Below, one piece after another: positions 10,532 through 49,293 of a DNA stretch of 64,000 nucleotides. Below the pieces are notes generated by a model that did not search any database, was not told the origin of the DNA, and worked only from the letters and a program-made list of their open reading frames with translations. The DNA comes from Labia minor (Eukaryota; Arthropoda; Insecta; Dermaptera; Spongiphoridae), in the NCBI GenBank assembly GCA_963082975.1, contig OY720349.1, positions 66,958,501 through 67,022,500 on the forward strand. The letters run 5' to 3'. Positions within the stretch are counted from its first letter, which is position 1. Each line of letters opens with the position of its first letter. The translations under genes and the position numbers were made by a program.

Positions 10532-13500
10532 ATGAAATGTTTTAAAAAAAATAATAAATTCGTTCATTTTACATCATATAAATATTAAAAAAATATATTA
10601 TTGATATTTCTGATGAATAATTATTTTTTTATGCCGAAAACCTAGGGTCATCCTACGATGACCTTTCATAATTTTTACGGGAAAATTAAAAAATGAAATT
10701 TTTAAAAATAAATAATAAATTCGTTCATTTTACATCATAAAAATATTAAAAAAATATATTATTGATATTTCTGATGAATAATTATTTTTTTAATGTCGAA
10801 AACCTAGGGTCATCCTACGATGACCTTTCATACTTTTTACGGGAAAATTAAAAAATGAAATTTTTAGAAAATCAATAATAAATTCGTTCATTTTACATCA
10901 TAAAAATATTAAAAAAATATATTATTCATATTCTTACTAAAAATTATTTTTTTATGCCGAAACCTAGGGTCATCCTACGATGACCTTTCATAATTTTTAC
11001 GGGAAAATTAAAAAATGAAATTTTTAAAAATAAATAATAAATTCGTTCATTTTACATCATAAAAATATTAAAAAAATATATTATTGATATTTCTGATGAA
11101 TAATTATTTTTTTATACCGAAAACCTAGGGTCATCCTACGATGACCTTTCATAATTTTTTAGGTAAAATTAAAAAATGAAATGTTTTAAAAAAAATAATA
11201 AATTCGTTCTGTTTACATCATAAAAATATTGAAAAAATATATTATTGATATTTCTGAAGAATAATTATTTTTTTTCCGAAAAGCTAGGGTCATCCTACGA
11301 TGACTTTTCATAATTTTTTAGCTAAAATTAAAAAATTAAATGTTTTAAAAAAAATAATAAATTCGTTCATTTTACATCATAAAAATATTAAAAATATATA
11401 TTATTGATATTTCTGATGAATAATTATTTTATTATGCCGAACACCTAGGGTCATCCTACGATGACCTCTCATAATTTTTACGGGAAAATTAAAATATTAA
11501 ATTTTTAAAAATAAATAATAAATTCATTCATTTAACTTTATAAAAATATTAAAAAAATATATTATTGATATTTCTGATGAATAATTATTTTTTTATGCCG
11601 AAAAGCTAGGGTCATCCTACGATGACCTTTCATAATTTTTACGGGAAAATTAAAAAATGAAATTTTTAAAAATAAATAATAAATTCGTTCATTTTACATC
11701 ATAAAAATATTAAAAAAATATATTATTGATATATCTGATGAATAATTATTTTTTTATGCCGAAAACCTAGGGTCATCCTACGATGACCTTTCATAATTTT
11801 TACGGGAAAATTAAAAAATGAAATTTTTAAAAATAAATAATAAATTCGTTCATTTTACATCATATAAATATTAAAAAAATATATTATTGATATTTCTGAT
11901 GAATAATTATTTTTTTATGCAGAAAACCTAAGGTCATCCTACAATGACCTTTCATAATTTTTACGGGAAAATTAAAATATGAAATTTTTAAAAATAAATA
12001 ATAAATTCGTTCATTTAACTTCATAAAAATATTAAAAAAAATATTATTGATATTTTTGATGAATAATTATTTTTTTATGGCGAAAACCTAGGGTCATCCT
12101 ACGATGACCTTTCATAATTTTTACGGGAAAATTAAAAAATGAAATTTTTAAAAATAAATAATAAATTCGTTCATTTTACATCATATAAATATTAAAAAAA
12201 TATATTATTGATATTTCTGATGAATAATTATTTTTTTATACTGAAAACCTAGGGTCATCCTACGATGACCTTTCATAATTTTTACGGGAAAATTAAAATA
12301 TGAAATTTTTAAAAATAAATAATAAATTCGTACATTTTACATCAGAAAAATATTAAAAAAATATATTATTGATATTTCTGATGAATAATTATTTTTTTAT
12401 GCCGAAAACCTAGGGTCATCCTACGATGACCTTTCATAATATTTACGGGAAAATTAAAAAATGAAATTTTTAAAAATAAATAATAAATTCGTTCATTTTA
12501 CATCATAAAAATATTAAAAAAATATATTATTGATATTTCTGATGAATAATTATTTTTTTAATGCCGAAAACCTAGGGTCATCCTAAGATGACCTTTCATA
12601 ATTTTTACGGGAAAATTAAAAAATGAAATTTTTAGAAAATCAATAATAAATTCGTTCATTTTACATCATAAAAATATTAAAAAAATATATTATTCATATT
12701 TCTTACTAAAAATTATTTTATTATGCCGAAACCTAGGGTCATCCTACGATGACCTTTCATAATTTTTACGGGAAAATTAAAAAATGAAATTTTTAAAAAT
12801 AAATAATAAATTCGTTCATTTTACATCATAAAAATATTAAAAAAATATATTATTGATATTTCTGATGAATAATTATTTTTTATACCGAAAACCTAGGGTC
12901 ATCCTACGATGACCTTTCATAAATTTTACGGGAAAATTAAAAAATGAAATGTTTTAAAAAAAATAATAAATTCGTTCATTTTACATCATATAAATATTAA
13001 AAAAATATATTATTGATATTTCTGATGAATAATTATTTTTTTATGCCGAAAACCTAGGGTCATCCTACGATGACCTTTCATAATTTTTACGGGAAAATTA
13101 AAAAATGAAATTTTTAAAAATAAATAATAAATTCGTTCATTTTACATCATAAAAATATTAAAAAAATATATTATTGATATTTCTGATGAATAATTATTTT
13201 TTTAATGCCGAAAACCTAGGGTCATCCTACGATGACCTTTCATAATTTTTACGGGAAAATTAAAAAATGAAATTTTTAAAAATAAATAATAAATTCTTTC
13301 ATTTTACATCATAAAAATATTAAAAAAATATATTATTGATATTTCTGATGAATAATTATTTTTTTAATGCCGAAAACCTAGGGTCATCCTACGATGACAT
13401 TTCATAATTTTTACGGGAAAATTAAAAAATGAAATTTTTTACAAAATCAATAATAAATTCGTTCATTTTACATCATAAAAATATTAAAAAAATATATTAT

Positions 13501-14342
13501 TCATATTTCTTACTAAAAATTATTTTTTTATGCCGAAACCTAGGGTCATCCTACGATGACCTTTCATAATTTTTACGGGAAAATTAAAAAATGAAATTTT
13601 TAAAAATAAATAATAAATTCGTTCATTTTACATCATAAAAATATTAAAAAAATATATTATTGATATTTCTGATGAATAATTATTTTTTTTTACCGAAAAC
13701 CTAGGGTCATCCTACGATGACCTTTCATAATTTTTTAGGTAAAATTAAAAAATGAAATGTTTTAAAAAAAATAATAAATTCGTTCTGTTTACATCATAAA
13801 AATATTGAAAAAATATATTATTGATATTTCTGAAGAATAATTATTTTTTTTCCGAAAACCTAGGGTCATCCTACGATGACCTTTCATAATTTTTTAGCTA
13901 AAATTAAAAAATTAAATGTTTTAAAAAAAATAATAAATTCGTTCATTTTACATCATAAAAATATTAAAAATATATATTATTGATATTTCTGATGAATAAT
14001 TATTTTATTATGCCGAACACCTAGGGTCATCCTACGATGACCTTTCATAATTTTTACGGGAAAATTAAAAAATGAAATTTTTAAAAATAAATAATAAATT
14101 CGTTCATTTTACATCAGAAAAATATTAAAAAAATATATTATTGATATTTCTGATGAATAATTATTTTTTTATGCCGAAAACCTAGGGTCATCCTACGATG
14201 ACCTTTCATAATTTTTACGGGAAAATTAAAAAATGAAATTTTTAAAAATAAATAATAAATTCGTTCATTTTACATCATAAAAATATTAAAAAAATATATT
14301 ATTGATATTTCTGATGAATAATTATTTTTTTAATGCCGAAAA

Positions 14343-16273
14343 CCTAGGGTCATCCTACGATGACCTTTCATAATTTTTACGGGAAAATTAAAATATGAAA
14401 TTTTTAAAAATAAATAATAAATTCGTTCATTTTACATCATATAAATATTAAAAAAATATATTATTGATATTTCTGATGAATAATTATTTTTTTATGCCGA
14501 AAACCTAAGGTCATCCTACGATGACCTTTCATAATTTTTAAGGGAAAATTAAAATATGAAATTTTTAAAAATAAATAATAAATTCGTTCATTTAACTTCA
14601 TAAAAATATTAAAAAAATATATTATTGATATTTCTGATGAATAATTATTTTTTTATGCCGAAAACCTAGGGTCATCCTACGATGACCTATCATAATTTTT
14701 TCGGTATAATTAAAAAATGAAATATTTTAAAAAAAATAATAAATTTGTACATTTTACATCAGAAAAATATTAAAAAAATATATTATTGATATTTCTGATG
14801 AATAATTATTTTTTTATGCCGAAAACCTAGGGTCATCCTAAGATGACCTTTCATAATTTTTACGGGAAACTTAAAAAATGAAATTTTTAAAAATAAATAA
14901 TAAATTCGTTCATTTTACATAATATAAATATTAAAAAAATATATTATTGATATTTCTGATGAATAATTATTTTTTTTCCGAAAACCTAGGGTCATCCTAC
15001 GATGACGTTTCATAATTTTTTCGGTAAAATTAAAAAATGAAATGTTTTAAAAAAAATAATAAATTCGTTCTGTTTACATCATAAAAATATTGAAAAAATA
15101 TATTATTGATATTTTTGATGAATAATTATTTTTTTATGCCGAAAACCTAAGGTCATCCTACGATGAACTTTCATAATTTTTAAGGGAAAATTAAAATATG
15201 AAATTTTTAAAAATAAATAATAAATTCGTTAATTTAACTTCATAAAAATATTAAAAAAATATATTATTGATATTTCTGATGAATAATTATTTTTTTATGC
15301 CGAAAACCTAGGGTCATCCTACGATGACCTTTCATAATTTTTACGGGAAAATTAAAAAATGAAATTTTTAAAAATAAATAATAAATTCGTTCATTTTACA
15401 TCATAAAAATATTAAAAAAATATATTAATGATATTTCTGATGAATAATTATTTTTTTAATGCCGAAAACCTAGGGTCATCCTAAGATGACCTTTCATAAT
15501 TTTTACGGGAAAATTAAAAAATGAAATTTTTAGAAAATCAATAATAAATTCGTTCATTTTACATCATAAAAATATTAAAAAAATATATTATTCATATTTC
15601 TTACTAAAAATTATTTTATTATGCCGAAACCTAGGGTCATCCTACGATGACCTTTCATAATTTTTACGGGAAAATTAAAAAATGAAATTTTTAAAAATAA
15701 ATAATAAATTCGTTCATTTTACATCATAAAAATATTAAAAAAATATATTATTGATATTTCTGATGAATAATTATTTTTTATACCGAAAACCTAGGGTCAT
15801 CCTACGATGACCTTTCATAAATTTTACGGGAAAATTAAAAAATGAAATGTTTTAAAAATAAATAATAAATTCGTTCATATAACTTCATAAAAATATTAAA
15901 AAAAATATTATTGATATTTTTGATGAATAATTATTTTTTTATGCCGAAAACCTAGTGTCATCCTACGATGACCTTTCATAATTTTTACGGGAAAATTAAA
16001 AAATGAAATTTTTAAAAATAAATAATAAGTTCGTTCATTTTACATCATATAAATATTAAAAAAATATATTATTGATATTTCTGATGAATAATTATTTTTT
16101 TATACCGAAAACCTAGGGTCATCCTACGATGACCTTTCATAATTTTTACGGGAAAATTAAAAAATGAAATTTTTAAAAATAAATAATAAATTCGTTCATT
16201 TTACATCATAAAAATATTAAAAAAATATATTATTGATATTTCTGATGAATAATTATTTTTTTAATGCCGAAAA
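14343..16273. repeat. 12-mer block R, complete copy (1,931 bp)
   Basis: Matches 7746-9676 at offset 6,597. Carries a private CATAATATAAAT near 14,928, also found at about 30,193 in the second super-unit, so that copy descends from this version and not from the neighbour at 16274. Confidence 0.87.
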
Positions 16274-18042
16274 CCTAGGGTCATCCTACGATGACCTTTC
16301 ATAATTTTTACGGGAAAATTAAAATATGAAATTTTTAAAAATAAATAATAAATTCGTTCATTTTACATCATATAAATATTAAAAAAATATATTATTGATA
16401 TTTCTGATGAATAATTATTTTTTTATGCCGAAAACCTAAGGTCATCCTACGATGACCTTTCATAATTTTTAAGGGAAAATTAAAATATGAAATTTTTAAA
16501 AATAAATAATAAATTCGTTCATTTAACTTCATAAAAATATTAAAAAAATATATTATTGATATTTCTGATGAATAATTATTTTTTTATGCCGAAAACCTAG
16601 GGTCATCCTACGATGACCTATCATAATTTTTTCGGTATAATTAAAAAATGAAATATTTTAAAAAAAATAATAAATTTGTACATTTTACATCAGAAAAATA
16701 TTAAAAAAATATATTATTGATATTTCTGATGAATAATTATTTTTTTATGCCGAAAACCTAGGGTCATCCTAAGATGACCTTTCATAATTTTTACGGGAAA
16801 CTTAAAAAATGAAATTTTTAAAAATAAATAATAAATTCGTTCATTTTACATCATATAAATATTAAAAAAATATATTATTGATATTTCTGATGAATAATTA
16901 TTTTTTTTCCGAAAACCTAGGGTCATCCTACGATGACGTTTCATAATTTTTTCGGTAAAATTAAAAAATGAAATGTTTTAAAAAAAATAATAAATTCGTT
17001 CTGTTTACATCATAAAAATATTGAAAAAATATATTATTGATATTTTTGATGAATAATTATTTTTTTATGCCGAAAACCTAAGGTCATCCTACGATGAACT
17101 TTCATAATTTTTAAGGGAAAATTAAAATATGAAATTTTTAAAAATAAATAATAAATTCGTTAATTTAACTTCATAAAAATATTAAAAAAATATATTATTG
17201 ATATTTCTGATGAATAATTATTTTTTTATGCCGAAAACCTAGGGTCATCCTACGATGACCTTTCATAATTTTTACGGGAAAATTAAAAAATGAAATTTTT
17301 AAAAATAAATAATAAATTCGTTCATTTTACATCATAAAAATATTAAAAAAATATATTAATGATATTTCTGATGAATAATTATTTTTTTAATGCCGAAAAC
17401 CTAGGGTCATCCTAAGATGACCTTTCATAATTTTTACGGGAAAATTAAAAAATGAAATTTTTAGAAAATCAATAATAAATTCGTTCATTTTACATCATAA
17501 AAATATTAAAAAAATATATTATTCATATTTCTTACTAAAAATTATTTTATTATGCCGAAACCTAGGGTCATCCTACGATGACCTTTCATAATTTTTACGG
17601 GAAAATTAAAAAATGAAATTTTTAAAAATAAATAATAAATTCGTTCATTTTACATCATAAAAATATTAAAAAAATATATTATTGATATTTCTGATGAATA
17701 ATTATTTTTTATACCGAAAACCTAGGGTCATCCTACGATGACCTTTCATAAATTTTACGGGAAAATTAAAAAATGAAATGTTTTAAAAATAAATAATAAA
17801 TTCGTTCATATAACTTCATAAAAATATTAAAAAAAATATTATTGATATTTTTGATGAATAATTATTTTTTTATGCCGAAAACCTAGTGTCATCCTACGAT
17901 GACCTTTCATAATTTTTACGGGAAAATTAAAAAATGAAATTTTTAAAAATAAATAATAACTTCGTTCATTTTACATCATATAAATATTAAAAAAATATAT
18001 TATTGATATTTCTGATGAATAATTATTTTTTTATACCGAAAA
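16274..18042. repeat. 12-mer block R, second tandem copy (11 monomers before divergence)
   Basis: Follows the same variant order (TATTAATGATATT at about 17,353; CCTAGTGTC at 17,882). It differs from the first copy by AATAACTTCG (17,961) in place of AATAAGTTCG. The next monomer, at 18043, shares the ATACCG start but then carries TTAGGTAAAA and GTTCTG, so the R pattern ends here. Confidence 0.82.
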
Positions 18043-21000
18043 CCTAGGGTCATCCTACGATGACCTTTCATAATTTTTTAGGTAAAATTAAAAAATGAAA
18101 TGTTTTAAAAAAAATAATAAATTCGTTCTGTTTACATCATAAAAATATTGAAAAAATATATTATTGATATTTCTGAAGAATAATTATTTTTTTTCCGAAA
18201 ACCTAGGGTCATCCTACGATGACCTTTCATAATTTTTTAGGTAAAATTAAAAAATTAAATGTTTTAAAAAAAATAATAAATTCGTTGATTTTACATCATA
18301 AAAATATTAAAAAAATATATTATTGATATTTCTGATGAATAATTATTTTATTATGCCGAACACCTAGGGTCATCCTACGATGACCTTTCATAATTTTTAC
18401 GGGAAAATTAAAAAATGAAATTTTTAAAAATAAATAATAAATTCGTACATTTTACATCAGAAAAATATTAAAAAAATATATTATTCATATTTCTGATGAA
18501 TAATTATTTTTTTATGCCGAAAACCTAGGGTCATCCTAAGATGACCTTTCATAATTTTTACGCGAAACTTAAAAAATGAAATTTTTAAAAATAAATAATA
18601 AATTCGTTCATTTTAAATCATATAAATATTAAAAAAATATATTATTGATATTTCTGATGAATAATTATTTTTTTATGCCGAAAACCTAAGGTCATCCTAC
18701 GATGACCTTTCATAATTTTTAAGGGAAAATTAAAATATGAAATTTTTAAAAATAAATAATAAATTCGTCCATTTAACTTCATAAAAATATTAAAAAAATA
18801 TATTATTGATATTTCTGATGAATAATTATTTTTTTATGCCGAAAACCTAGGGTCATCCTACGATGACCTATCATAATTTTTTCGGTATAATTAAAAAATG
18901 AAATATTTAAAAAAAATAATAAATTTTTACATTTTACATCAGAAAAATATTAAAAAAATATATTATTGATATTTCTGATGAATAATTATTTTTTTATGCC
19001 GAAAACCTAGGGTCATCCTATAATGACCTTTCATAATTTTTACGGGAAAATTAAAAAATAAAATTTTTAAAAATAAATAATAAATTCGTACATTTTACAT
19101 CAGAAAAATATTAAAAAAATATATTATTGATATTTCTGATGAATAATTATTTTTTTATGACGAAATCCTAGGGTCATCCTACGATGACCTTTCATAATTT
19201 TTACGGGAAAATTAAAAAATGAAATTTTTAAAAATAAATAATAAATTCGTTCATTTTACATCATATAAATATTAAAAAAATATATTATTGATATTTCTGA
19301 TGAATAATTATTTTTTTTCCGAAAACCTAGGGTCATCCTACGATGACGTTTCATAATTTTTTCGGTAAAATTAAAAAATGAAATGTTTTAAAAAAAATAA
19401 TAAATTCGTTCTGTTTACATCATAAAAATATTGAAAAAATATATTATTGATATTTTTGATGAATAATTATTTTTTTATGCCGAAAACCTAAGGTCATCCT
19501 ACGATGAACTTTCATAATTTTTAAGGGAAAATTAAAATATGAAATTTTTAAAAATAAATAATAAATTCGTTCATTTAACTTCATAAAAATATTAAAAAAA
19601 TATATTATTGATATTTCTGATGAATAATTATTTTTTTATGCCGAAAACCTAGGGTCATCCTACGATGACCTTTCATAATTTTTTCGGTATAATTAAAAAA
19701 TGAAATATTTTAAAATAAATAATAAATTTGTACATTTTACATCAGAAAAATATTAAAAAAATATATTATTGATATTTCTGATGAATAATTATTTTTTTAT
19801 GCCGAAAACCTAGGGTCATCCTACGATGACCTTTCATAATTTTTACGGGAAAATTAAAAAATAAAATTTTTAAAAATAAATAATAAATTCGTACATTTTA
19901 CATCAGAAAAATATTAAAAAAATATATTATTGATATTTCTGATGAATAATTATTTTTTTATGACGAAATCCTAGGGTCATCCTACGATGACCTTTCATAA
20001 TTTTTACGGGAAAATTAAAAAATGAAATTTTTAAAAATAAATAATAAATTCGTTCATTTTATTCATAAAAATATTAAAAAAATATATTATTGATATTTCT
20101 GATGAATAATTATTTTTTTATGCCGAAAACCTAGGGTCATCCTACGATGACCTTTCATAATTTTTACGGGAAAATTAAAAAATGAAATTTTTAAAAATAA
20201 ATAATAAATTCGTACATTTTACATCATAAAAATATTAAAAAAATATATTATTGATATTTCTGATGAATAATTATTTTTTTATGCCGAAAACCTAGGGTCA
20301 TCCTACGATGACCTTTCATAATTTTTACGGGAAAATTAAAAAATGAAATTTTTAAAAATAAATAATAAATTCGTTCATTTTACATCATATAAATATTAAA
20401 AAAATATATTATTGATATTTCTGAAGAATAATTATTTTTTTTCCGAAAACCTAGGGTCATCCTACGATGACCTTTCATAATTTTTTAGGTAAAATTAAAA
20501 AATTAAATGTTTTAAAAAAAATAATAAATTCGTTCATTTTACATCATAAAAATATTAAAAAAATATATTATTGATATTTCTGATGAATAATTATTTTTTT
20601 ATGCCGAAAACCTAGGGTCATCCTACGATGACCTTTCATAATATTTACGGGAAAATTAAAAAATGAAATTTTTAAAAATAAATAATAAATTCGTTCATTT
20701 TACATCATAAAAATATTAAAAAAATATATTATTGATATTTCTGATGAATAATTATTTTTTTAATGCCGAAAACCTAGGGTCATCCTAAGATGACCTTTCA
20801 TAATTTTTACGGGAAAATTAAAAAATGAAATTTTTAGAAAATCAATAATAAATTCGTTCATTTTACATCATAAAAATATTAAAAAAATATATTATTCATA
20901 TTTCTTACTAAAAATTATTTTATTATGCCGAAACCTAGGGTCATCCTACGATGACCTTTCATAATTTTTACGGGAAAATTAAAAAATGAAATTTTTAAAA

Positions 21001-22218
21001 ATAAATAATAAATTCGTTCATTTTACATCATAAAAATATTAAAAAAATATATTATTGATATTTCTGATGAATAATTATTTTTTATACCGAAAACCTAGGG
21101 TCATCCTACGATGACCTTTCATAAATTTTACGGGAAAATTAAAAAATGAAATGTTTTAAAAAAAATAATAAATTCGTTCATTTTACATCATATAAATATT
21201 AAAAAAATATATTATTGATATTTCTGATGAATAATTATTTTTTTATGCCGAAAACCTAGGGTCATCCTACGATGACCTTTCATAATTTTTACGGGAAAAT
21301 TAAAAAATGAAATTTTTAAAAATAAATAATAAATTCGTTCATTTTACATCATAAAAATATTAAAAAAATATATTATTGATATTTCTGATGAATAATTATT
21401 TTTTTAATGCCGAAAACCTAGGGTCATCCTACGATGACCTTTCATACTTTTTACGGGAAAATTAAAAAATGAAATTTTTAGAAAATCAATAATAAATTCG
21501 TTCATTTTACATCATAAAAATATTAAAAAAATATATTATTCATATTCTTACTAAAAATTATTTTTTTATGCCGAAACCTAGGGTCATCCTACGATGACCT
21601 TTCATAATTTTTACGGGAAAATTAAAAAATGAAATTTTTAAAAATAAATAATAAATTCGTTCATTTTACATCATAAAAATATTAAAAAAATATATTATTG
21701 ATATTTCTGATGAATAATTATTTTTTTATACCGAAAACCTAGGGTCATCCTACGATGACCTTTCATAATTTTTTAGGTAAAATTAAAAAATGAAATGTTT
21801 TAAAAAAAATAATAAATTCGTTCTGTTTACATCATAAAAATATTGAAAAAATATATTATTGATATTTCTGAAGAATAATTATTTTTTTTCCGAAAAGCTA
21901 GGGTCATCCTACGATGACCTTTCATAATTTTTTAGCTAAAATTAAAAAATTAAATGTTTTAAAAAAAATAATAAATTCGTTCATTTTACATCATAAAAAT
22001 ATTAAAAATATATATTATTGATATTTCTGATGAATAATTATTTTATTATGCCGAACACCTAGGGTCATCCTACGATGACCTCTCATAATTTTTACGGGAA
22101 AATTAAAAAATGAAATTTTTAAAAATAAATAATAAATTCGTTCATTTAACTTCATAAAAATATTAAAAAAATATATTATTGATATTTCTGATGAATAATT
22201 ATTTTTTTATGCCGAAAA

Positions 22219-22378
22219 GCTAGGGTCATCCTACGATGACCTTTCATAATTTTTACGGGAAAATTAAAATATGAAATTTTTAAAAATAAATAATAAATTC
22301 GTTCATTTAACTTCATAAAAATATTAAAAAAAATATTATTGATATTTTTGATGAATAATTATTTTTTTATGGCGAAAA
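22219..22378. repeat. Hybrid monomer marking loss of two monomers
   Basis: Left part is the GAAAAGC variant; from about 22,270 it reads AAATATGAAATTTTT, then TTAACTTC, and is followed by GGCG, as the GCAG variant does. In the second super-unit the same interval (35,563-36,044) holds three monomers, 482 bp instead of 160. A 322-bp deletion by exchange within homologous positions explains it. Confidence 0.85.
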
Positions 22379-23665
22379 CCTAGGGTCATCCTACGATGAC
22401 CTTTCATAATTTTTACGGGAAAATTAAAAAATGAAATTTTTAAAAATAAATAATAAATTCGTTCATTTTACATCATATAAATATTAAAAAAATATATTAT
22501 TGATATTTCTGATGAATAATTATTTTTTTATACTGAAAACCTAGGGTCATCCTACGATGACCTTTCATAATTTTTACGGGAAAATTAAAAAATGAAATTT
22601 TTAAAAATAAATAATAAATTCGTTCATTTTACATCATATAAATATTAAAAAAATATATTATTGATATTTCTGATGAATAATTATTTTTTTATGCAGAAAA
22701 CCTAAGGTCATCTTACAATGACCTTTCATAATTTTTACGGGAAAATTAAAATATGAAATTTTTAAAAATAAATAATAAATTCGTACATTTTACATCAGAA
22801 AAATATTAAAAAAATATATTATTGATATTTCTGATGAATAATTATTTTTTTATGCCGAAAACCTAGGGTCATCCTACGATGACCTTTCATAATTTTTACG
22901 GGAAAATTAAAAAATGAAATTTTTAAAAATAAATAATAAATTCGTTCATTTTACATCATAAAAATATTAAAAAAATATATTATTGATATTTCTGATGAAT
23001 AATTATTTTTTTAATGCCGAAAACCTAGGGTCATCCTACGATGACCTTTCATAATTTTTACGGGAAAATTAAAAAATGAAATTTTTAGAAAATCAATAAT
23101 AAATTCGTTCATTTTACATCATAAAAATATTAAAAAAAATATTATTGATATTTTTGATGAATAATTATTTTTTTATGCCGAAAACCTAGTGTCATCCTAC
23201 GATGACCTTTCATAATTTTTACGGGAAAATTAAAAAATGAAATTTTTAAAAATAAATAATAACTTCGTTCATTTTACATCATATAAATATTAAAAAAATA
23301 TATTATTGATATTTCTGATGAATAATTATTTTTTTATACCGAAAACCTAGGGTCATCCTACGATGACCTTTCATAATTTTATAGGTAAAATTAAAAAATG
23401 AAATGTTTTAAAAAAAATAATAAATTCGTTCTGTTTACATCATAAAAATATTGAAAAAATATATTATTGATATTTCTGAAGAATAATTATTTTTTTTCCG
23501 AAAACCTAGGGTCATCCTACGATGACCTTTCATAATTTTTTAGGTAAAATTAAAAAATTAAATGTTTTAAAAAAAATAATAAATTCGTTGATTTTACATC
23601 ATAAAAATATTAAAAAAATATATTATTGATATTTCTGATGAATAATTATTTTATTATGCCGAACA

Positions 23666-23824
23666 CCTAGGGTCATCCTACGATGACCTTTCATAATTTT
23701 TACGGGAAACTTAAAAAATGAAATTTTTAAAAATAAATAATATATTCGTTCATTTTACATCATATAAATATTAAAAAAATATATTATTGATATTTCTGAT
23801 GAATAATTATTTTTTTTCCGAAAA
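23666..23824. repeat. Hybrid monomer marking loss of four monomers
   Basis: Starts as the TTATTATGCCGAACACC variant and switches by 23,710 to GGGAAACTTAAAA with ATATAAAT, followed by the TTCCG/GATGACG monomer. The second super-unit has five monomers here (37,332-38,133), a difference of 643 bp. An earlier paralogous stretch, 18,362-19,325, has six. A private AATAATATATTCG change lies near 23,742. Confidence 0.83.
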
Positions 23825-26800: not shown

Positions 26801-27521
26801 TTCATTTTACATCATAAAAATATTAAAAAAATATATTATTGATATATCTGATGAATAATTATTTTTTTATGCCGAAAACCTAGGGTCATCCTACGATGAC
26901 CTTTCATAATTTTTACGGGAAAATTAAAAAATGAAATTTTTAAAAATAAATAATAAATTCGTTCATTTTACATCATATAAATATTAAAAAAATATATTAT
27001 TGATATTTCTGATGAATAATTATTTTTTTATGCAGAAAACCTAAGGTCATCCTACAATGACCTTTCATAATTTTTACGGGAAAATTAAAATATGAAATTT
27101 TTAAAAATAAATAATAAATTCGTTCATTTAACTTCATAAAAATATTAAAAAAAATATTATTGATATTTTTGATGAATAATTATTTTTTTATGGCGAAAAC
27201 CTAGGGTCATCCTACGATGACCTTTCATAATTTTTACGGGAAAATTAAAAAATGAAATTTTTAAAAATAAATAATAAATTCGTTCATTTTACATCATATA
27301 AATATTAAAAAAATATATTATTGATATTTCTGATGAATAATTATTTTTTTATACTGAAAACCTAGGGTCATCCTACGATGACCTTTCATAATTTTTACGG
27401 GAAAATTAAAAAATGAAATTTTTAAAAATAAATAATAAATTCGTTCATTTTACATCATATAAATATTAAAAAAATATATTATTGATATTTCTGATGAATA
27501 ATTATTTTTTTATGCAGAAAA

Positions 27522-27682
27522 CCTAAGGTCATCTTACAATGACCTTTCATAATTTTTACGGGAAAATTAAAATATGAAATTTTTAAAAATAAATAATAAA
27601 TTCGTACATTTTACATCAGAAAAATATTAAAAAAATATATTATTGATATTTCTGATGAATAATTATTTTTTTATGCCGAAAA
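27522..27682. repeat. Extra monomer with CATCTTACAATG core
   Basis: A GCAGAAAACCTAAGG monomer followed by CATCTTACAATGACC, AAATATG and GTACATT. It is present in units starting at 2116, 21417, 25916, 34761 and 40225 and absent from those at 25, 4206 and 10803, where its right half is fused to the ACTG monomer (for example 12,248-12,408). It separates two lineages of the unit. Confidence 0.8.
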
Positions 27683-31386: not shown

Positions 31387-34300
31387 CCTAGGGTCATCCT
31401 ACGATGACCTTTCATAATTTTTTAGGTAAAATTAAAAAATGAAATGTTTTAAAAAAAATAATAAATTCGTTCTGTTTACATCATAAAAATATTGAAAAAA
31501 TATATTATTGATATTTCTGAAGAATAATTATTTTTTTTCCGAAAACCTAGGGTCATCCTACGATGACCTTTCATAATTTTTTAGGTAAAATTAAAAAATT
31601 AAATGTTTTAAAAAAAATAATAAATTCGTTGATTTTACATCATAAAAATATTAAAAAAATATATTATTGATATTTCTGATGAATAATTATTTTATTATGC
31701 CGAACACCTAGGGTCATCCTACGATGACCTTTCATAATTTTTACGGGAAAATTAAAAAATGAAATTTTTAAAAATAAATAATAAATTCGTACATTTTACA
31801 TCAGAAAAATATTAAAAAAATATATTATTCATATTTCTGATGAATAATTATTTTTTTATGCCGAAAACCTAGGGTCATCCTAAGATGACCTTTCATAATT
31901 TTTACGCGAAACTTAAAAAATGAAATTTTTAAAAATAAATAATAAATTCGTTCATTTTAAATCATATAAATATTAAAAAAATATATTATTGATATTTCTG
32001 ATGAATAATTATTTTTTTATGCCGAAAACCTAAGGTCATCCTACGATGACCTTTCATAATTTTTAAGGGAAAATTAAAATATGAAATTTTTAAAAATAAA
32101 TAATAAATTCGTCCATTTAACTTCATAAAAATATTAAAAAAATATATTATTGATATTTCTGATGAATAATTATTTTTTTATGCCGAAAACCTAGGGTCAT
32201 CCTACGATGACCTATCATAATTTTTTCGGTATAATTAAAAAATGAAATATTTAAAAAAAATAATAAATTTTTACATTTTACATCAGAAAAATATTAAAAA
32301 AATATATTATTGATATTTCTGATGAATAATTATTTTTTTATGCCGAAAACCTAGGGTCATCCTATAATGACCTTTCATAATTTTTACGGGAAAATTAAAA
32401 AATAAAATTTTTAAAAATAAATAATAAATTCGTACATTTTACATCAGAAAAATATTAAAAAAATATATTATTGATATTTCTGATGAATAATTATTTTTTT
32501 ATGACGAAATCCTAGGGTCATCCTACGATGACCTTTCATAATTTTTACGGGAAAATTAAAAAATGAAATTTTTAAAAATAAATAATAAATTCGTTCATTT
32601 TACATCATATAAATATTAAAAAAATATATTATTGATATTTCTGATGAATAATTATTTTTTTTCCGAAAACCTAGGGTCATCCTACGATGACGTTTCATAA
32701 TTTTTTCGGTAAAATTAAAAAATGAAATGTTTTAAAAAAAATAATAAATTCGTTCTGTTTACATCATAAAAATATTGAAAAAATATATTATTGATATTTT
32801 TGATGAATAATTATTTTTTTATGCCGAAAACCTAAGGTCATCCTACGATGAACTTTCATAATTTTTAAGGGAAAATTAAAATATGAAATTTTTAAAAATA
32901 AATAATAAATTCGTTCATTTAACTTCATAAAAATATTAAAAAAATATATTATTGATATTTCTGATGAATAATTATTTTTTTATGCCGAAAACCTAGGGTC
33001 ATCCTACGATGACCTTTCATAATTTTTTCGGTATAATTAAAAAATGAAATATTTTAAAATAAATAATAAATTTGTACATTTTACATCAGAAAAATATTAA
33101 AAAAATATATTATTGATATTTCTGATGAATAATTATTTTTTTATGCCGAAAACCTAGGGTCATCCTACGATGACCTTTCATAATTTTTACGGGAAAATTA
33201 AAAAATAAAATTTTTAAAAATAAATAATAAATTCGTACATTTTACATCAGAAAAATATTAAAAAAATATATTATTGATATTTCTGATGAATAATTATTTT
33301 TTTATGACGAAATCCTAGGGTCATCCTACGATGACCTTTCATAATTTTTACGGGAAAATTAAAAAATGAAATTTTTAAAAATAAATAATAAATTCGTTCA
33401 TTTTATTCATAAAAATATTAAAAAAATATATTATTGATATTTCTGATGAATAATTATTTTTTTATGCCGAAAACCTAGGGTCATCCTACGATGACCTTTC
33501 ATAATTTTTACGGGAAAATTAAAAAATGAAATTTTTAAAAATAAATAATAAATTCGTACATTTTACATCATAAAAATATTAAAAAAATATATTATTGATA
33601 TTTCTGATGAATAATTATTTTTTTATGCCGAAAACCTAGGGTCATCCTACGATGACCTTTCATAATTTTTACGGGAAAATTAAAAAATGAAATTTTTAAA
33701 AATAAATAATAAATTCGTTCATTTTACATCATATAAATATTAAAAAAATATATTATTGATATTTCTGAAGAATAATTATTTTTTTTCCGAAAACCTAGGG
33801 TCATCCTACGATGACCTTTCATAATTTTTTAGGTAAAATTAAAAAATTAAATGTTTTAAAAAAAATAATAAATTCGTTCATTTTACATCATAAAAATATT
33901 AAAAAAATATATTATTGATATTTCTGATGAATAATTATTTTTTTATGCCGAAAACCTAGGGTCATCCTACGATGACCTTTCATAATATTTACGGGAAAAT
34001 TAAAAAATGAAATTTTTAAAAATAAATAATAAATTCGTTCATTTTACATCATAAAAATATTAAAAAAATATATTATTGATATTTCTGATGAATAATTATT
34101 TTTTTAATGCCGAAAACCTAGGGTCATCCTAAGATGACCTTTCATAATTTTTACGGGAAAATTAAAAAATGAAATTTTTAGAAAATCAATAATAAATTCG
34201 TTCATTTTACATCATAAAAATATTAAAAAAATATATTATTCATATTTCTTACTAAAAATTATTTTATTATGCCGAAACCTAGGGTCATCCTACGATGACC

Positions 34301-34760
34301 TTTCATAATTTTTACGGGAAAATTAAAAAATGAAATTTTTAAAAATAAATAATAAATTCGTTCATTTTACATCATAAAAATATTAAAAAAATATATTATT
34401 GATATTTCTGATGAATAATTATTTTTTATACCGAAAACCTAGGGTCATCCTACGATGACCTTTCATAAATTTTACGGGAAAATTAAAAAATGAAATGTTT
34501 TAAAAAAAATAATAAATTCGTTCATTTTACATCATATAAATATTAAAAAAATATATTATTGATATTTCTGATGAATAATTATTTTTTTATGCCGAAAACC
34601 TAGGGTCATCCTACGATGACCTTTCATAATTTTTACGGGAAAATTAAAAAATGAAATTTTTAAAAATAAATAATAAATTCGTTCATTTTACATCATAAAA
34701 ATATTAAAAAAATATATTATTGATATTTCTGATGAATAATTATTTTTTTAATGCCGAAAA

Positions 34761-37700
34761 CCTAGGGTCATCCTACGATGACCTTTCATACTTTTTACGG
34801 GAAAATTAAAAAATGAAATTTTTAGAAAATCAATAATAAATTCGTTCATTTTACATCATAAAAATATTAAAAAAATATATTATTCATATTCTTACTAAAA
34901 ATTATTTTTTTATGCCGAAACCTAGGGTCATCCTACGATGACCTTTCATAATTTTTACGGGAAAATTAAAAAATGAAATTTTTAAAAATAAATAATAAAT
35001 TCGTTCATTTTACATCATAAAAATATTAAAAAAATATATTATTGATATTTCTGATGAATAATTATTTTTTTATACCGAAAACCTAGGGTCATCCTACGAT
35101 GACCTTTCATAATTTTTTAGGTAAAATTAAAAAATGAAATGTTTTAAAAAAAATAATAAATTCGTTCTGTTTACATCATAAAAATATTGAAAAAATATAT
35201 TATTGATATTTCTGAAGAATAATTATTTTTTTTCCGAAAAGCTAGGGTCATCCTACGATGACCTTTCATAATTTTTTAGCTAAAATTAAAAAATTAAATG
35301 TTTTAAAAAAAATAATAAATTCGTTCATTTTACATCATAAAAATATTAAAAATATATATTATTGATATTTCTGATGAATAATTATTTTATTATGCCGAAC
35401 ACCTAGGGTCATCCTACGATGACCTCTCATAATTTTTACGGGAAAATTAAAATATTAAATTTTTAAAAATAAATAATAAATTCGTTCATTTAACTTCATA
35501 AAAATATTAAAAAAATATATTATTGATATTTCTGATGAATAATTATTTTTTTATGCCGAAAAGCTAGGGTCATCCTACGATGACCTTTCATAATTTTTAC
35601 GGGAAAATTAAAAAATGAAATTTTTAAAAATAAATAATAAATTCGTTCATTTTACATCATAAAAATATTAAAAAAATATATTATTGATATATCTGATGAA
35701 TAATTATTTTTTTATGCCGAAAACCTAGGGTCATCCTACGATGACCTTTCATAATTTTTACGGGAAAATTAAAAAATGAAATTTTTAAAAATAAATAATA
35801 AATTCGTTCATTTTACATCATATAAATATTAAAAAAATATATTATTGATATTTCTGATGAATAATTATTTTTTTATGCAGAAAACCTAAGGTCATCCTAC
35901 AATGACCTTTCATAATTTTTACGGGAAAATTAAAATATGAAATTTTTAAAAATAAATAATAAATTCGTTCATTTAACTTCATAAAAATATTAAAAAAAAT
36001 ATTATTGATATTTTTGATGAATAATTATTTTTTTATGGCGAAAACCTAGGGTCATCCTACGATGACCTTTCATAATTTTTACGGGAAAATTAAAAAATGA
36101 AATTTTTAAAAATAAATAATAAATTCGTTCATTTTACATCATATAAATATTAAAAAAATATATTATTGATATTTCTGATGAATAATTATTTTTTTATACT
36201 GAAAACCTAGGGTCATCCTACGATGACCTTTCATAATTTTTACGGGAAAATTAAAAAATGAAATTTTTAAAAATAAATAATAAATTCGTTCATTTTACAT
36301 CATATAAATATTAAAAAAATATATTATTGATATTTCTGATGAATAATTATTTTTTTATGCAGAAAACCTAAGGTCATCTTACAATGACCTTTCATAATTT
36401 TTACGGGAAAATTAAAATATGAAATTTTTAAAAATAAATAATAAATTCGTACATTTTACATCAGAAAAATATTAAAAAAATATATTATTGATATTTCTGA
36501 TGAATAATTATTTTTTTATGCCGAAAACCTAGGGTCATCCTACGATGACCTTTCATAATTTTTACGGGAAAATTAAAAAATGAAATTTTTAAAAATAAAT
36601 AATAAATTCGTTCATTTTACATCATAAAAATATTAAAAAAATATATTATTGATATTTCTGATGAATAATTATTTTTTTAATGCCGAAAACCTAGGGTCAT
36701 CCTACGATGACCTTTCATAATTTTTACGGGAAAATTAAAAAATGAAATTTTTAGAAAATCAATAATAAATTCGTTCATTTTACATCATAAAAATATTAAA
36801 AAAAATATTATTGATATTTTTGATGAATAATTATTTTTTTATGCCGAAAACCTAGTGTCATCCTACGATGACCTTTCATAATTTTTACGGGAAAATTAAA
36901 AAATGAAATTTTTAAAAATAAATAATAACTTCGTTCATTTTACATCATATAAATATTAAAAAAATATATTATTGATATTTCTGATGAATAATTATTTTTT
37001 TATACCGAAAACCTAGGGTCATCCTACGATGACCTTTCATAATTTTATAGGTAAAATTAAAAAATGAAATGTTTTAAAAAAAATAATAAATTCGTTCTGT
37101 TTACATCATAAAAATATTGAAAAAATATATTATTGATATTTCTGAAGAATAATTATTTTTTTTCCGAAAACCTAGGGTCATCCTACGATGACCTTTCATA
37201 ATTTTTTAGGTAAAATTAAAAAATTAAATGTTTTAAAAAAAATAATAAATTCGTTGATTTTACATCATAAAAATATTAAAAAAATATATTATTGATATTT
37301 CTGATGAATAATTATTTTATTATGCCGAACACCTAGGGTCATCCTACGATGACCTTTCATAATTTTTACGGGAAAATTAAAAAATGAAATTTTTAAAAAT
37401 AAATAATAAATTCGTACATTTTACATCAGAAAAATATTAAAAAAATATATTATTCATATTTCTGATGAATAATTATTTTTTTATGCCGAAAACCTAGGGT
37501 CATCCTAAGATGACCTTTCATAATTTTTACGCGAAACTTAAAAAATGAAATTTTTAAAAATAAATAATAAATTCGTTCATTTTAAATCATATAAATATTA
37601 AAAAAATATATTATTGATATTTCTGATGAATAATTATTTTTTTATGCCGAAAACCTAAGGTCATCCTACGATGACCTTTCATAATTTTTAAGGGAAAATT

Positions 37701-40224
37701 AAAATATGAAATTTTTAAAAATAAATAATAAATTCGTCCATTTAACTTCATAAAAATATTAAAAAAATATATTATTGATATTTCTGATGAATAATTATTT
37801 TTTTATGCCGAAAACCTAGGGTCATCCTACGATGACCTATCATAATTTTTTCGGTATAATTAAAAAATGAAATATTTAAAAAAAATAATAAATTTGTACA
37901 TTTTACATCAGAAAAATATTAAAAAAATATATTATTGATATTTCTGATGAATAATTATTTTTTTATGCCGAAAACCTAGGGTCATCCTAAGATGACCTTT
38001 CATAATTTTTACGGGAAACTTAAAAAATGAAATTTTTAAAAATAAATAATAAATTCGTTCATTTTACATCATATAAATATTAAAAAAATATATTATTGAT
38101 ATTTCTGATGAATAATTATTTTTTTTCCGAAAACCTAGGGTCATCCTACGATGACGTTTCATAATTTTTTCGGTAAAATTAAAAAATGAAATGTTTTAAA
38201 AAAAATAATAAATTCGTTCTGTTTACATCATAAAAATATTGAAAAAATATATTATTGATATTTTTGATGAATAATTATTTTTTTATGCCGAAAACCTAAG
38301 GTCATCCTACGATGAACTTTCATAATTTTTAAGGGAAAATTAAAATATGAAATTTTTAAAAATAAATAATAAATTCGTTCATTTAACTTCATAAAAATAT
38401 TAAAAAAATATATTATTGATATTTCTGATGAATAATTATTTTTTTATGCCGAAAACCTAGGGTCATCCTACGATGACCTTTCATAATTTTTTCGGTATAA
38501 TTAAAAAATGAAATATTTTAAAAAAAATAATAAATTTGTACATTTTACATCAGAAAAATATTAAAAAAATATATTATTGATATTTCTGATGAATAATTAT
38601 TTTTTTATGCCGAAAACCTAGGGTCATCCTACGATGACCTTTCATAATTTTTACGGGAAAATTAAAAAATAAAATTTTTAAAAATAAATAATAAATTCGT
38701 ACATTTTACATCAGAAAAATATTAAAAAAATATATTATTGATATTTCTGATGAATAATTATTTTTTTATGACGAAATCCTAGGGTCATCCTACGATGACC
38801 TTTCATAATTTTTACGGGAAAATTAAAAAATGAAATTTTTAAAAATAAATAATAAATTCGTTCATTTTATTCATAAAAATATTAAAAAAATATATTATTG
38901 ATATTTCTGATGAATAATTATTTTTTTATGCCGAAAACCTAGGGTCATCCTACGATGACCTTTCATAATTTTTACGGGAAAATTAAAAAATGAAATTTTT
39001 AAAAATAAATAATAAATTCGTACATTTTACATCATAAAAATATTAAAAAAATATATTATTGATATTTCTGATGAATAATTATTTTTTTATGCCGAAAACC
39101 TAGGGTCATCCTACGATGACCTTTCATAATTTTTACGGGAAAATTAAAAAATGAAATTTTTAAAAATAAATAATAAATTCGTTCATTTTACATCATATAA
39201 ATATTAAAAAAATATATTATTGATATTTCTGAAGAATAATTATTTTTTTTCCGAAAACCTAGGGTCATCCTACGATGACCTTTCATAATTTTTTAGGTAA
39301 AATTAAAAAATTAAATGTTTTAAAAAAAATAATAAATTCGTTCATTTTACATCATAAAAATATTAAAAAAATATATTATTGATATTTCTGATGAATAATT
39401 ATTTTTTTATGCCGAAAACCTAGGGTCATCCTACGATGACCTTTCATAATATTTACGGGAAAATTAAAAAATGAAATTTTTAAAAATAAATAATAAATTC
39501 GTTCATTTTACATCATAAAAATATTAAAAAAATATATTATTGATATTTCTGATGAATAATTATTTTTTTAATGTCGAAAACCTAGGGTCATCCTAAGATG
39601 ACCTTTCATAATTTTTACGGGAAAATTAAAAAATGAAATTTTTAGAAAATCAATAATAAATTCGTTCATTTTACATCATAAAAATATTAAAAAAATATAT
39701 TATTCATATTTCTTACTAAAAATTATTTTATTATGCCGAAACCTAGGGTCATCCTACGATGACCTTTCATAATTTTTACGGGAAAATTAAAAAATGAAAT
39801 TTTTAAAAATAAATAATAAATTCGTTCATTTTACATCATAAAAATATTAAAAAAATATATTATTGATATTTCTGATGAATAATTATTTTTTATACCGAAA
39901 ACCTAGGGTCATCCTACGATGACCTTTCATAAATTTTACGGGAAAATTAAAAAATGAAATGTTTTAAAAAAAATAATAAATTCGTTCATTTTACATCATA
40001 TAAATATTAAAAAAATATATTATTGATATTTCTGATGAATAATTATTTTTTTATGCCGAAAACCTAGGGTCATCCTACGATGACCTTTCATAATTTTTAC
40101 GGGAAAATTAAAAAATGAAATTTTTAAAAATAAATAATAAATTCGTTCATTTTACATCATAAAAATATTAAAAAAATATATTATTGATATTTCTGATGAA
40201 TAATTATTTTTTTAATGTCGAAAA
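34761..40224. repeat. 34-monomer sub-unit in super-unit 2 (5,464 bp)
   Basis: Counterpart of 21,417-25,915 with six more monomers (two at 35,563-36,044, four at 37,332-38,133). It repeats the stretch before it at offset 5,464 (GATGACGTTT monomers at 32,670 and 38,134). Near its end, at 39,574, an AATGTCG stands before a CTAAGATG core where all comparable copies have AATGCCG. Confidence 0.82.
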
Positions 40225-43200
40225 CCTAGGGTCATCCTACGATGACCTTTCATACTTTTTACGGGAAAATTAAAAAATGAAATTTTTAGAAAATCAATAA
40301 TAAATTCGTTCATTTTACATCATAAAAATATTAAAAAAATATATTATTCATATTCTTACTAAAAATTATTTTTTTATGCCGAAACCTAGGGTCATCCTAC
40401 GATGACCTTTCATAATTTTTACGGGAAAATTAAAAAATGAAATTTTTAAAAATAAATAATAAATTCGTTCATTTTACATCATAAAAATATTAAAAAAATA
40501 TATTATTGATATTTCTGATGAATAATTATTTTTTTATACCGAAAACCTAGGGTCATCCTACGATGACCTTTCATAATTTTTTAGGTAAAATTAAAAAATG
40601 AAATGTTTTAAAAAAAATAATAAATTCGTTCTGTTTACATCATAAAAATATTGAAAAAATATATTATTGATATTTCTGAAGAATAATTATTTTTTTTCCG
40701 AAAAGCTAGGGTCATCCTACGATGACCTTTCATAATTTTTTAGCTAAAATTAAAAAATTAAATGTTTTAAAAAAAATAATAAATTCGTTCATTTTACATC
40801 ATAAAAATATTAAAAATATATATTATTGATATTTCTGATGAATAATTATTTTATTATGCCGAACACCTAGGGTCATCCTACGATGACCTCTCATAATTTT
40901 TACGGGAAAATTAAAATATTAAATTTTTAAAAATAAATAATAAATTCATTCATTTAACTTTATAAAAATATTAAAAAAATATATTATTGATATTTCTGAT
41001 GAATAATTATTTTTTTATGCCGAAAAGCTAGGGTCATCCTACGATGACCTTTCATAATTTTTACGGGAAAATTAAAAAATGAAATTTTTAAAAATAAATA
41101 ATAAATTCGTTCATTTTACATCATAAAAATATTAAAAAAATATATTATTGATATATCTGATGAATAATTATTTTTTTATGCCGAAAACCTAGGGTCATCC
41201 TACGATGACCTTTCATAATTTTTACGGGAAAATTAAAAAATGAAATTTTTAAAAATAAATAATAAATTCGTTCATTTTACATCATATAAATATTAAAAAA
41301 ATATATTATTGATATTTCTGATGAATAATTATTTTTTTATGCAGAAAACCTAAGGTCATCCTACAATGACCTTTCATAATTTTTACGGGAAAATTAAAAT
41401 ATGAAATTTTTAAAAATAAATAATAAATTCGTTCATTTAACTTCATAAAAATATTAAAAAAAATATTATTGATATTTTTGATGAATAATTATTTTTTTAT
41501 GGCGAAAACCTAGGGTCATCCTACGATGACCTTTCATAATTTTTACGGGAAAATTAAAAAATGAAATTTTTAAAAATAAATAATAAATTCGTTCATTTTA
41601 CATCATATAAATATTAAAAAAATATATTATTGATATTTCTGATGAATAATTATTTTTTTATACTGAAAACCTAGGGTCATCCTACGATGACCTTTCATAA
41701 TTTTTACGGGAAAATTAAAAAATGAAATTTTTAAAAATAAATAATAAATTCGTTCATTTTACATCATATAAATATTAAAAAAATATATTATTGATATTTC
41801 TGATGAATAATTATTTTTTTATGCAGAAAACCTAAGGTCATCTTACAATGACCTTTCATAATTTTTACGGGAAAATTAAAATATGAAATTTTTAAAAATA
41901 AATAATAAATTCGTACATTTTACATCAGAAAAATATTAAAAAAATATATTATTGATATTTCTGATGAATAATTATTTTTTTATGCCGAAAACCTAGGGTC
42001 ATCCTACGATGACCTTTCATAATATTTACGGGAAAATTAAAAAATGAAATTTTTAAAAATAAATAATAAATTCGTTCATTTTACATCATAAAAATATTAA
42101 AAAAATATATTATTGATATTTCTGATGAATAATTATTTTTTTAATGCCGAAAACCTAGGGTCATCCTAAGATGACCTTTCATAATTTTTACGGGAAAATT
42201 AAAAAATGAAATTTTTAGAAAATCAATAATAAATTCGTTCATTTTACATCATAAAAATATTAAAAAAATATATTATTCATATTTCTTACTAAAAATTATT
42301 TTATTATGCCGAAACCTAGGGTCATCCTACGATGACCTTTCATAATTTTTACGGGAAAATTAAAAAATGAAATTTTTAAAAATAAATAATAAATTCGTTC
42401 ATTTTACATCATAAAAATATTAAAAAAATATATTATTGATATTTCTGATGAATAATTATTTTTTATACCGAAAACCTAGGGTCATCCTACGATGACCTTT
42501 CATAAATTTTACGGGAAAATTAAAAAATGAAATGTTTTAAAAAAAATAATAAATTCGTTCATTTTACATCATATAAATATTAAAAAAATATATTATTGAT
42601 ATTTCTGATGAATAATTATTTTTTTATGCCGAAAACCTAGGGTCATCCTACGATGACCTTTCATAATTTTTACGGGAAAATTAAAAAATGAAATTTTTAA
42701 AAATAAATAATAAATTCGTTCATTTTACATCATAAAAATATTAAAAAAATATATTATTGATATTTCTGATGAATAATTATTTTTTTAATGCCGAAAACCT
42801 AGGGTCATCCTACGATGACCTTTCATAATTTTTACGGGAAAATTAAAAAATGAAATTTTTAAAAATAAATAATAAATTCTTTCATTTTACATCATAAAAA
42901 TATTAAAAAAATATATTATTGATATTTCTGATGAATAATTATTTTTTTAATGCCGAAAACCTAGGGTCATCCTACGATGACATTTCATAATTTTTACGGG
43001 AAAATTAAAAAATGAAATTTTTTACAAAATCAATAATAAATTCGTTCATTTTACATCATAAAAATATTAAAAAAATATATTATTCATATTTCTTACTAAA
43101 AATTATTTTTTTATGCCGAAACCTAGGGTCATCCTACGATGACCTTTCATAATTTTTACGGGAAAATTAAAAAATGAAATTTTTAAAAATAAATAATAAA

Positions 43201-43975
43201 TTCGTTCATTTTACATCATAAAAATATTAAAAAAATATATTATTGATATTTCTGATGAATAATTATTTTTTTTTACCGAAAACCTAGGGTCATCCTACGA
43301 TGACCTTTCATAATTTTTTAGGTAAAATTAAAAAATGAAATGTTTTAAAAAAAATAATAAATTCGTTCTGTTTACATCATAAAAATATTGAAAAAATATA
43401 TTATTGATATTTCTGAAGAATAATTATTTTTTTTCCGAAAACCTAGGGTCATCCTACGATGACCTTTCATAATTTTTTAGCTAAAATTAAAAAATTAAAT
43501 GTTTTAAAAAAAATAATAAATTCGTTCATTTTACATCATAAAAATATTAAAAATATATATTATTGATATTTCTGATGAATAATTATTTTATTATGCCGAA
43601 CACCTAGGGTCATCCTACGATGACCTTTCATAATTTTTACGGGAAAATTAAAAAATGAAATTTTTAAAAATAAATAATAAATTCGTTCATTTTACATCAG
43701 AAAAATATTAAAAAAATATATTATTGATATTTCTGATGAATAATTATTTTTTTATGCCGAAAACCTAGGGTCATCCTACGATGACCTTTCATAATTTTTA
43801 CGGGAAAATTAAAAAATGAAATTTTTAAAAATAAATAATAAATTCGTTCATTTTACATCATAAAAATATTAAAAAAATATATTATTGATATTTCTGATGA
43901 ATAATTATTTTTTTAATGCCGAAAACCTAGGGTCATCCTACGATGACCTTTCATAATTTTTACGGGAAAATTAAA
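40225..43975. repeat. Super-HOR unit 3, left part only (about 3.75 kb)
   Basis: Matches 25,916 onward at offset 14,309 (14,308 after the private extra T at 28,051), including the CTTTC marker at 42,879 and the GATGACATTT monomer. The match ends inside the monomer at 43,926. There super-unit 2 reads AAAATATG and begins block R, whereas this copy reads AAAAAATG with AGAAAATC, an anchor-like monomer. Confidence 0.85.
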
Positions 43976-49247: not shown

Positions 49248-49281
49248 TTTCATAATTTTTACGGGAAAATTAAAAAATGAA

Positions 49282-49293
49282 ATTTTTAAAAAT
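49282..49293. other. 12-bp perfect A/T palindrome ATTTTTAAAAAT
   Basis: The element is its own reverse complement and is present in the main monomer type at monomer positions 58-69. The GTTTTAAAA and AGAAAATC variants break or shorten it, so it is a property of subtypes and not of the whole family. It sits inside a run of A- and T-tracts likely to give intrinsic curvature. Confidence 0.8.

What the first reader, a model, noticed from the sequence alone, without database searches (positions are those of the whole stretch)
10803..43975. Very long super-HOR of about 14-15 kb (94- and 89-monomer units)
Two complete units and part of a third follow the same order of monomer variants at offsets of 15,113 and 14,309 bp, tracked by rare markers (AATGTCG/CATACTT, CTTTC, GATGACATTT, CCTAGTG, GATGACG, TTTTATTCATAAA). 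Well-known centromeric HORs usually have far fewer monomers per unit (general knowledge of alpha satellite), so a unit of about 90 monomers is unusual. It implies recent amplification of very large segments.
Basis: seen in the sequence. Interest (0 to 1): 0.72.

Follow-up and report, generated by a model that had tools for sequence, protein, structure and literature searches.

The report
Very long nested satellite repeat unit
A 161-base satellite repeat is arranged here in 94- and 89-copy blocks that repeat almost letter for letter, showing that very large pieces of such DNA were recently duplicated; similar giant blocks are already reported in orangutan centromeres, so this is a good further example and not a new kind of thing.

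Summary
The whole window is one head-to-tail 161-bp, 80% AT satellite (397 full monomers, about 93% mutual identity). Unit 1 (10,779-25,891; 94 monomers; 15,113 bp) and unit 2 (25,892-40,200; 89 monomers; 14,309 bp) pair over 82 monomers at 99.86%. A third runs 23 monomers (40,201-43,901; 2 edits) and stops. Longest same-order run: 40 monomers, 3-4 in 30 shuffles. It is not a clean higher-order repeat (HOR): the units differ by 12, 1, 2 and 4 whole monomers, hold only 34 and 31 monomer types, repeat 13 monomers internally, and belong to a nest of duplications (lags 12, 13, 28, 34, 41, 55, 83-95 monomers) reaching base 1. Best reading: recent in-register exchange or conversion of multi-kilobase blocks, giving a "cascading" super-HOR. 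Precedent: orangutan 58-, 59- and (preliminary) 84-mers. Centromere function, unit copy number and organism stay unknown: the genome search was unreachable in 10 attempts and only 2.26 units lie in the window. Exploratory lead, mostly from the right flank: block junctions fall about twice as often as expected in an 18-bp dyad (p about 0.01, post hoc), but equally in the wider segment around it.

The parts
1..64000 (+). Head-to-tail array of one 161-bp, 19.5% G+C satellite monomer (398 anchors, all in one orientation)
10779..25891 (+). Unit 1: 94 monomers, 15,113 bp, 34 monomer types
25892..40200 (+). Unit 2: 89 monomers, 14,309 bp, 31 monomer types; 99.86% identical to unit 1 over 82 paired monomers
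40201..43901 (+). Unit 3, partial: 23 monomers in the order of unit 2 with 2 edits; order lost afterwards
14157..18018 (+). 12-monomer tandem duplication (14,157-16,087 and 16,088-18,018) in unit 1, single in unit 2 (the alignment places the extra 12 at monomers 93-104)
19302..27015 (+). Repeat at lag 28: 20 monomers of 19,302-22,515 recur at 23,801-27,015; 13 of the 20 lie twice inside unit 1, the rest of the second copy runs into unit 2
32646..42129 (+). Repeat at lag 34: 25 monomers of 32,646-36,665 recur at 38,110-42,129; 13 of the 25 lie twice inside unit 2, the rest of the second copy runs into unit 3
4020..17696 (+). Upstream tandem duplication of 41 monomers (6,597 bp), matching over 44 monomers with short interruptions allowed, 84% of the monomers identical
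43902..64000 (+). Less homogenised flank of the same satellite: more single-copy variants, 26 copying switches in 124 monomers against 11 in 273 to the left (each part run alone); short repeats at lags 13 and 30
10808..10825 (.). Example of the 18-bp dyad GGTCATC-CTAC-GATGACC; perfect arms at 334 places in the window

Best explanation
This is part of a large satellite array, most likely centromeric or pericentromeric heterochromatin of a eukaryote, in which long blocks were repeatedly duplicated in register by recombination between shifted copies (unequal exchange, or conversion / break-induced copying). Small blocks of 12-13 monomers and a 41-monomer block were built into a composite of about 90 monomers, which was then duplicated at least once completely and once at least in part, with gain or loss of 1, 2, 4 and 12 whole monomers. 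The result is a cascading (internally repetitive) super-HOR, here 2.26 copies. Shown: monomer order, identities, whole-monomer differences, chimeric junction monomers, preserved register. Inferred: the recombination pathway, the time order, the kind of organism and any centromere role.
For: 99.86% identity over 82 paired monomers of units 1 and 2, against about 93% between neighbours. A copying model needs 37 source switches for 397 monomers, against 230-232 in 5 shuffles of the order. At the three monomers of unit 1 that differ by 4 edits from their partner (76, 138, 147), a splice of two unit-2 monomers taken from the two sides of the missing ones cuts the edits to 0, 0 and 1, as in-register exchange predicts. 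In the other direction unit-2 monomers 223 and 236 are not improved by splicing (4 and 4 edits), which suggests that unit 1 lost the 2 and 4 monomers; monomer 170 does improve (3 to 0), so the single-monomer difference has no clear direction. 395 of 397 monomers are 159-162 bp long. Nested lags of 12, 13, 28, 34, 41, 55, 83, 89 and 95 monomers. The flank after 43,902 is less homogenised.
Against: Only 2.26 copies in one window, so a long array of this unit is not shown. The unit border is arbitrary: the type that opens a unit recurs at monomers 0, 13, 26, 67, 133, 161, 216 and 250 (spacings 13, 13, 41, 66, 28, 55, 34). The splice test used hand-picked small candidate sets, and two free parents reduce edits to some degree by themselves; of the other monomers tested, 232 fell only from 8 to 5 and 93, 104 and 137 were unchanged. 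Centromere position, chromatin and organism are unknown. Assembly error is not tested with reads.
Confidence: 0.78

Rival explanations
1. Irregular mosaic of segmental duplications within a satellite array, with no true repeating unit: the 94/89 unit is just the largest of many overlapping block copies.
For: No single lag dominates: over the whole window lags 83, 41 and 89 give mean edit distances of 9.6, 9.9 and 10.1 against 10.9 for all pairs; run lags vary widely; spacing of the opening monomer type is irregular.
Against: Units 1 and 2 and the start of unit 3 follow one order almost completely (82 of 94 and 82 of 89 monomers paired; 23 monomers in unit 3 before the break), which needs whole-unit duplication at least once.
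Confidence: 0.35
2. Assembly artefact: one unit duplicated, or two haplotypes joined end to end.
For: Near-identical multi-kilobase repeats are hard to assemble; no reads could be examined here.
Against: The copies are not identical (19 edits plus four whole-monomer differences between units 1 and 2), and duplications at many lags lie side by side, including a 41-monomer one upstream; a single false join would give one lag.
Confidence: 0.1
3. Amplification by rolling-circle copying of excised circles and re-insertion, not unequal exchange or conversion.
For: Would also give in-register tandem blocks; extrachromosomal circles from plant satellites are described (PMC2543021, only the search listing with the start of its abstract seen).
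Against: Whole-monomer differences with chimeric monomers inside units are expected from misaligned exchange; lags vary widely, so no constant circle length is seen.
Confidence: 0.12

Closest known systems
Cascading superHORs of orangutan alpha satellite (58mer on Y with a 90mer variant; 84mer on chromosome 5, called preliminary; 59mer on chromosome 13)
   Same: Very long unit with monomer types repeated inside it, variants made by gain or loss of rows or single monomers, divergence between copies of 0.25% (58mer) and 0.1% (59mer) (PMC12428378 and PMC11276891, passages read); here about 0.14%.
   Different: Another satellite (161 bp, 80% AT); monomers within a unit differ by about 7%, against 22.4% in the 59mer; 2.26 copies seen here, against 67 (abstract) or 310 (main text) copies of the 58mer; organism unknown.
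Human alpha-satellite HORs (33mer on chromosome 21, 34mer or 35mer on Y; a 52mer on chromosome 21 appears in the title of PMC12385485, seen only in the listing)
   Same: Ordered multi-monomer unit repeated at high identity.
   Different: Shorter units; the human Y unit is Willard-type, each monomer type once (PMC6718397 passages; PMC12428378 passages).
Mosaic HOR blocks of Arabidopsis CEN178 arrays (recalled; no passage read)
   Same: Block duplications of consecutive monomers at many lags.
   Different: From memory, blocks there are mostly much shorter; not tested here.

Membership tests
Higher-order repeat (HOR) | Copies of the unit much more alike than monomers within a unit | tested here: met
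   99.86% between units 1 and 2; 6.7-6.9% mean divergence within units
Higher-order repeat (HOR) | Same order of monomer variants in successive copies | tested here: met
   82 paired monomers in order, plus 23 of a third copy; 40-monomer run against 3-4 in 30 shuffles
Higher-order repeat (HOR) | Many tandem copies forming an array | tested here: inconclusive
   2.26 copies in the window; genome search did not complete (10 calls)
Higher-order repeat (HOR) | Constant unit length | tested here: not met
   94 and 89 monomers, 15,113 and 14,309 bp; the papers read accept length variants within an HOR array, so this lowers 'regular HOR', not 'HOR with variants'
Cascading superHOR | Monomer types repeated within the unit | tested here: met
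   34 types in 94 monomers and 31 in 89 at the chosen clustering; 13 monomers repeated inside each unit
Alpha satellite | About 171-bp monomer | tested here: not met
   161 bp
Alpha satellite | CENP-B box (consensus recalled; present in part of alpha monomers only) | tested here: not met
   0 matches with up to 1 mismatch, 6.4 expected by chance
Functional centromere DNA | CENP-A/CENH3 occupancy or centromere position | not testable with these tools

The most novel reading that the evidence does not exclude
The 18-bp dyad in each monomer, or the segment 21-90 around it, is a preferred place for the exchanges that build the blocks, for instance because a bound protein or an extruded hairpin causes breaks there. 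In five settings the junction intervals put 5.2-6.2 events into the dyad where 2.65-3.1 are expected (p 0.003-0.009 in 1000 null draws each; 0.015 without the width filter), and 14.9-18.0 into segment 21-90 where 9.9-11.9 are expected (p 0.001-0.011; 0.002 without the filter). G/C positions in the dyad vary less than G/C positions elsewhere (10 and 22 positions, p 0.004). Both tests were chosen after looking, events and monomers are not independent, most events (22 of 29) come from the right flank, and the dyad is not singled out from the segment around it.
Probability: 0.1. Interest if true: 0.6.

Novelty: new member of a known kind. Interest (0 to 1): 0.33.

Why it matters
It shows a giant, internally repetitive unit, made by recent multi-kilobase duplication, in a satellite that is not alpha satellite, and it is a clean case (few mutations, some junctions resolved inside single monomers) in which steps of satellite growth can be read. 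If the junction bias held in whole arrays, it would give a testable link between a satellite's own sequence and where it recombines.

Tried and rejected
Clean HOR with one period: rejected; of lags 1-376 monomers, only very long lags with few pairs (367, 354) give clearly low mean distances over the window.

Dyad as exact crossover point: a first look gave splice points 39-40 at three junctions, but these are only left ends of the possible intervals; with full intervals the two that the copying model also finds lie just right of the dyad centre (41-69 and 42-76), so an exact hotspot is not supported. A first null test (29 of 37 switches, width filter on the observed events but not on the null, no deduplication) gave 0 of 2000 draws as high, which is too favourable. 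One search mended this (same filter in the null, deduplication, three switch costs, reversed array) and left the weaker enrichment of the section on the most novel reading, with 23-30 events used of 35-39 switches; the rest had too wide intervals, sources at the edge, or junction monomers nearly identical to one already used. In the left part alone there are 7 usable events, 1.4 of them in the dyad.

Dyad as the best conserved part: not so over all positions (p 0.43); A/T stretches around 125-145 are more conserved. CENP-B box: none. Inverted sub-arrays as in Tribolium madens (PMC13081366, passages): none seen; 398 anchors in forward orientation and 0 reverse copies of an asymmetric 15-mer against 278 forward.

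Organism: the exact 23-base core has 0 matches in genome contigs and viral contigs (one scan each; the tool says that records of the window's own genome may be left out); blastn of bases 1-330 in phages and plasmids gave 10 and 8 records with short matches at E 0.007-0.008, taken as chance in A+T-rich DNA; 4 sequence strings in the paper library, 0 papers. Searches for 161-bp satellites listed 0, 3 and 1 papers; only the Bradysia coprophila paper was opened (PMC12051294, passages), and its 161-bp satellite reads differently by eye and was not aligned. A survey of tandem repeats in many species (PMC4053949, passages) does not mention 161 bp. I do not claim that no other non-primate unit of this length is in print.

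Full report
What is there. The whole 64,000-base window is one tandem array of a 161-bp, 19.5% G+C monomer; 398 anchors lie in one direction and no reverse copies were seen. Cut at a fixed phase it gives 397 full monomers, 134 of them distinct; 395 of 397 are 159-162 bp long, with one of 149 and one of 154. Two random monomers differ by 10.9 edits and neighbours by 11.3, so identity is about 93% and neighbours are no more alike than strangers.

Check of the claim. A monomer-by-monomer alignment pairs 82 monomers of units 1 and 2 with 19 edits in 13,182 bp, 99.86% identity; unit 3 follows unit 2 for 23 monomers with 2 edits and then stops matching. In monomer classes the longest same-order run is 40; in 30 shuffles of the order it was 3 in 22 and 4 in 8. 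The longest exact repeat is 5,256 bp.

Not a clean period. Unit 1 holds 12 monomers that unit 2 lacks (a tandem duplication at 14,157-18,018), and unit 2 holds 1, 2 and 4 monomers that unit 1 lacks. The units have 34 and 31 monomer types for 94 and 89 monomers (average-linkage clusters at 2.5 edits). Runs of 20 monomers at lag 28 and 25 at lag 34 start inside units 1 and 2; 13 monomers of each are repeated within the unit, and the second copy runs on over the chosen unit border. Upstream, 44 monomers match at lag 41 (short interruptions allowed) and 13 at lag 26, so ordered duplication reaches base 1. The monomer type that opens a unit recurs at spacings of 13, 13, 41, 66, 28, 55 and 34 monomers. 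A model in which each stretch is copied from elsewhere in the window needs 37 switches for 397 monomers, against 230-232 in 5 shuffles; run alone, the 273 monomers on the left need 11 and the 124 on the right 26, against 160-170 and 78-82 in 3 shuffles each. The left part is nearly free of single-copy variants; the right flank after about 43,902 has more.

How it most likely formed. Apart from single-letter edits, the differences between units are whole monomers. At the three unit-1 monomers that differ by 4 edits from their partners (76, 138, 147), a splice of two unit-2 monomers from either side of the missing ones explains the sequence with 0, 0 and 1 edits. The reverse test does not improve unit-2 monomers 223 and 236, so at these two places unit 1 probably lost monomers; for the single-monomer difference both directions fit (ten monomers tested with hand-picked candidates). 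This is what in-register homologous exchange or conversion between shifted copies leaves behind. Leaving out those three monomers, 7 edits remain in about 12.7 kb (lists), near 0.06%, so the large duplication is recent compared with the about 7% between monomers. No date is claimed, since organism and mutation rate are unknown and conversion may have erased differences. The pathway (unequal sister exchange, conversion, break-induced copying or circle re-insertion) is inference.

Assembly. Reads were not available. Many lags side by side, 19 edits and four structural differences between the two units make a simple false duplication or joined haplotypes unlikely, not impossible.

The monomer. 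It carries an 18-bp dyad, GGTCATC-CTAC-GATGACC, with perfect arms at 334 places (398 monomer anchors). In a single-strand DNA fold of the consensus it forms one of the stems kept in the centroid structure (z -2.1; 5 of 200 shuffles fold at least as well). G/C positions in the dyad vary less than those elsewhere (mean 0.028 against 0.092, 10 and 22 positions, p 0.004), but over all positions the dyad is not special (p 0.43). Junction intervals of the copying model put 5.2-6.2 events into the dyad where 2.65-3.1 are expected (five settings, p 0.003-0.009; 0.015 without the width filter), and the wider segment 21-90 is enriched as clearly (p 0.001-0.011). Most of these events lie in the right flank (22 of 29), the test was chosen after looking, and events are few, so it is a lead only. 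A CENP-B-box-like site is absent.

What is known. A 58mer cascading superHOR with 0.25% divergence, a 90mer variant of it and, as a preliminary result, an 84mer on chromosome 5 are reported for orangutan (PMC12428378, passages), and a 59mer for orangutan chromosome 13 (PMC11276891, passages). Human units named in the passages read are the 33mer of chromosome 21 and a 34mer or 35mer on Y (PMC6718397; PMC12428378). The present case shares the cascading pattern and the very low divergence between copies, in another satellite. It is slightly longer than the 84mer, but with only 2.26 copies. It is a new member of a known kind.

Limits. The organism was not identified: the 23-base core has no exact match in the two contig collections, which hold prokaryotes and viruses, and the search of the window's own genome did not complete in 10 attempts. 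That the source is a eukaryote and the array centromeric or pericentromeric is inference from monomer length, A+T content and array form.

Noticed in passing
30-47 and in most monomers: 18-bp dyad GGTCATC-CTAC-GATGACC, perfect arms at 334 places; possible protein-binding or hairpin site, with block junctions mildly enriched there and in the segment around it.
   Followed up: partly
about 44373-44420 and 55787-55830: Two small deletions (12 and 7 bp by monomer length) that, read by eye in the sequences, fall in or beside the left arm of the dyad; they cause the only monomer lengths outside 159-162 bp.
   Followed up: no
58037-62702: A separate duplication at lag 13 (16 monomers matching, 44% identical) in the right flank.
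   Followed up: partly
48718-50487 and 53541-55310: 11 monomers repeated at lag 30 (4,823 bp) in the right flank, 10 of 11 identical.
   Followed up: no
1-64000: CpG is 2.36 times the number expected from base composition, about 3.6 per monomer, which argues against long-term loss of CpG by methylation (inference).
   Followed up: no
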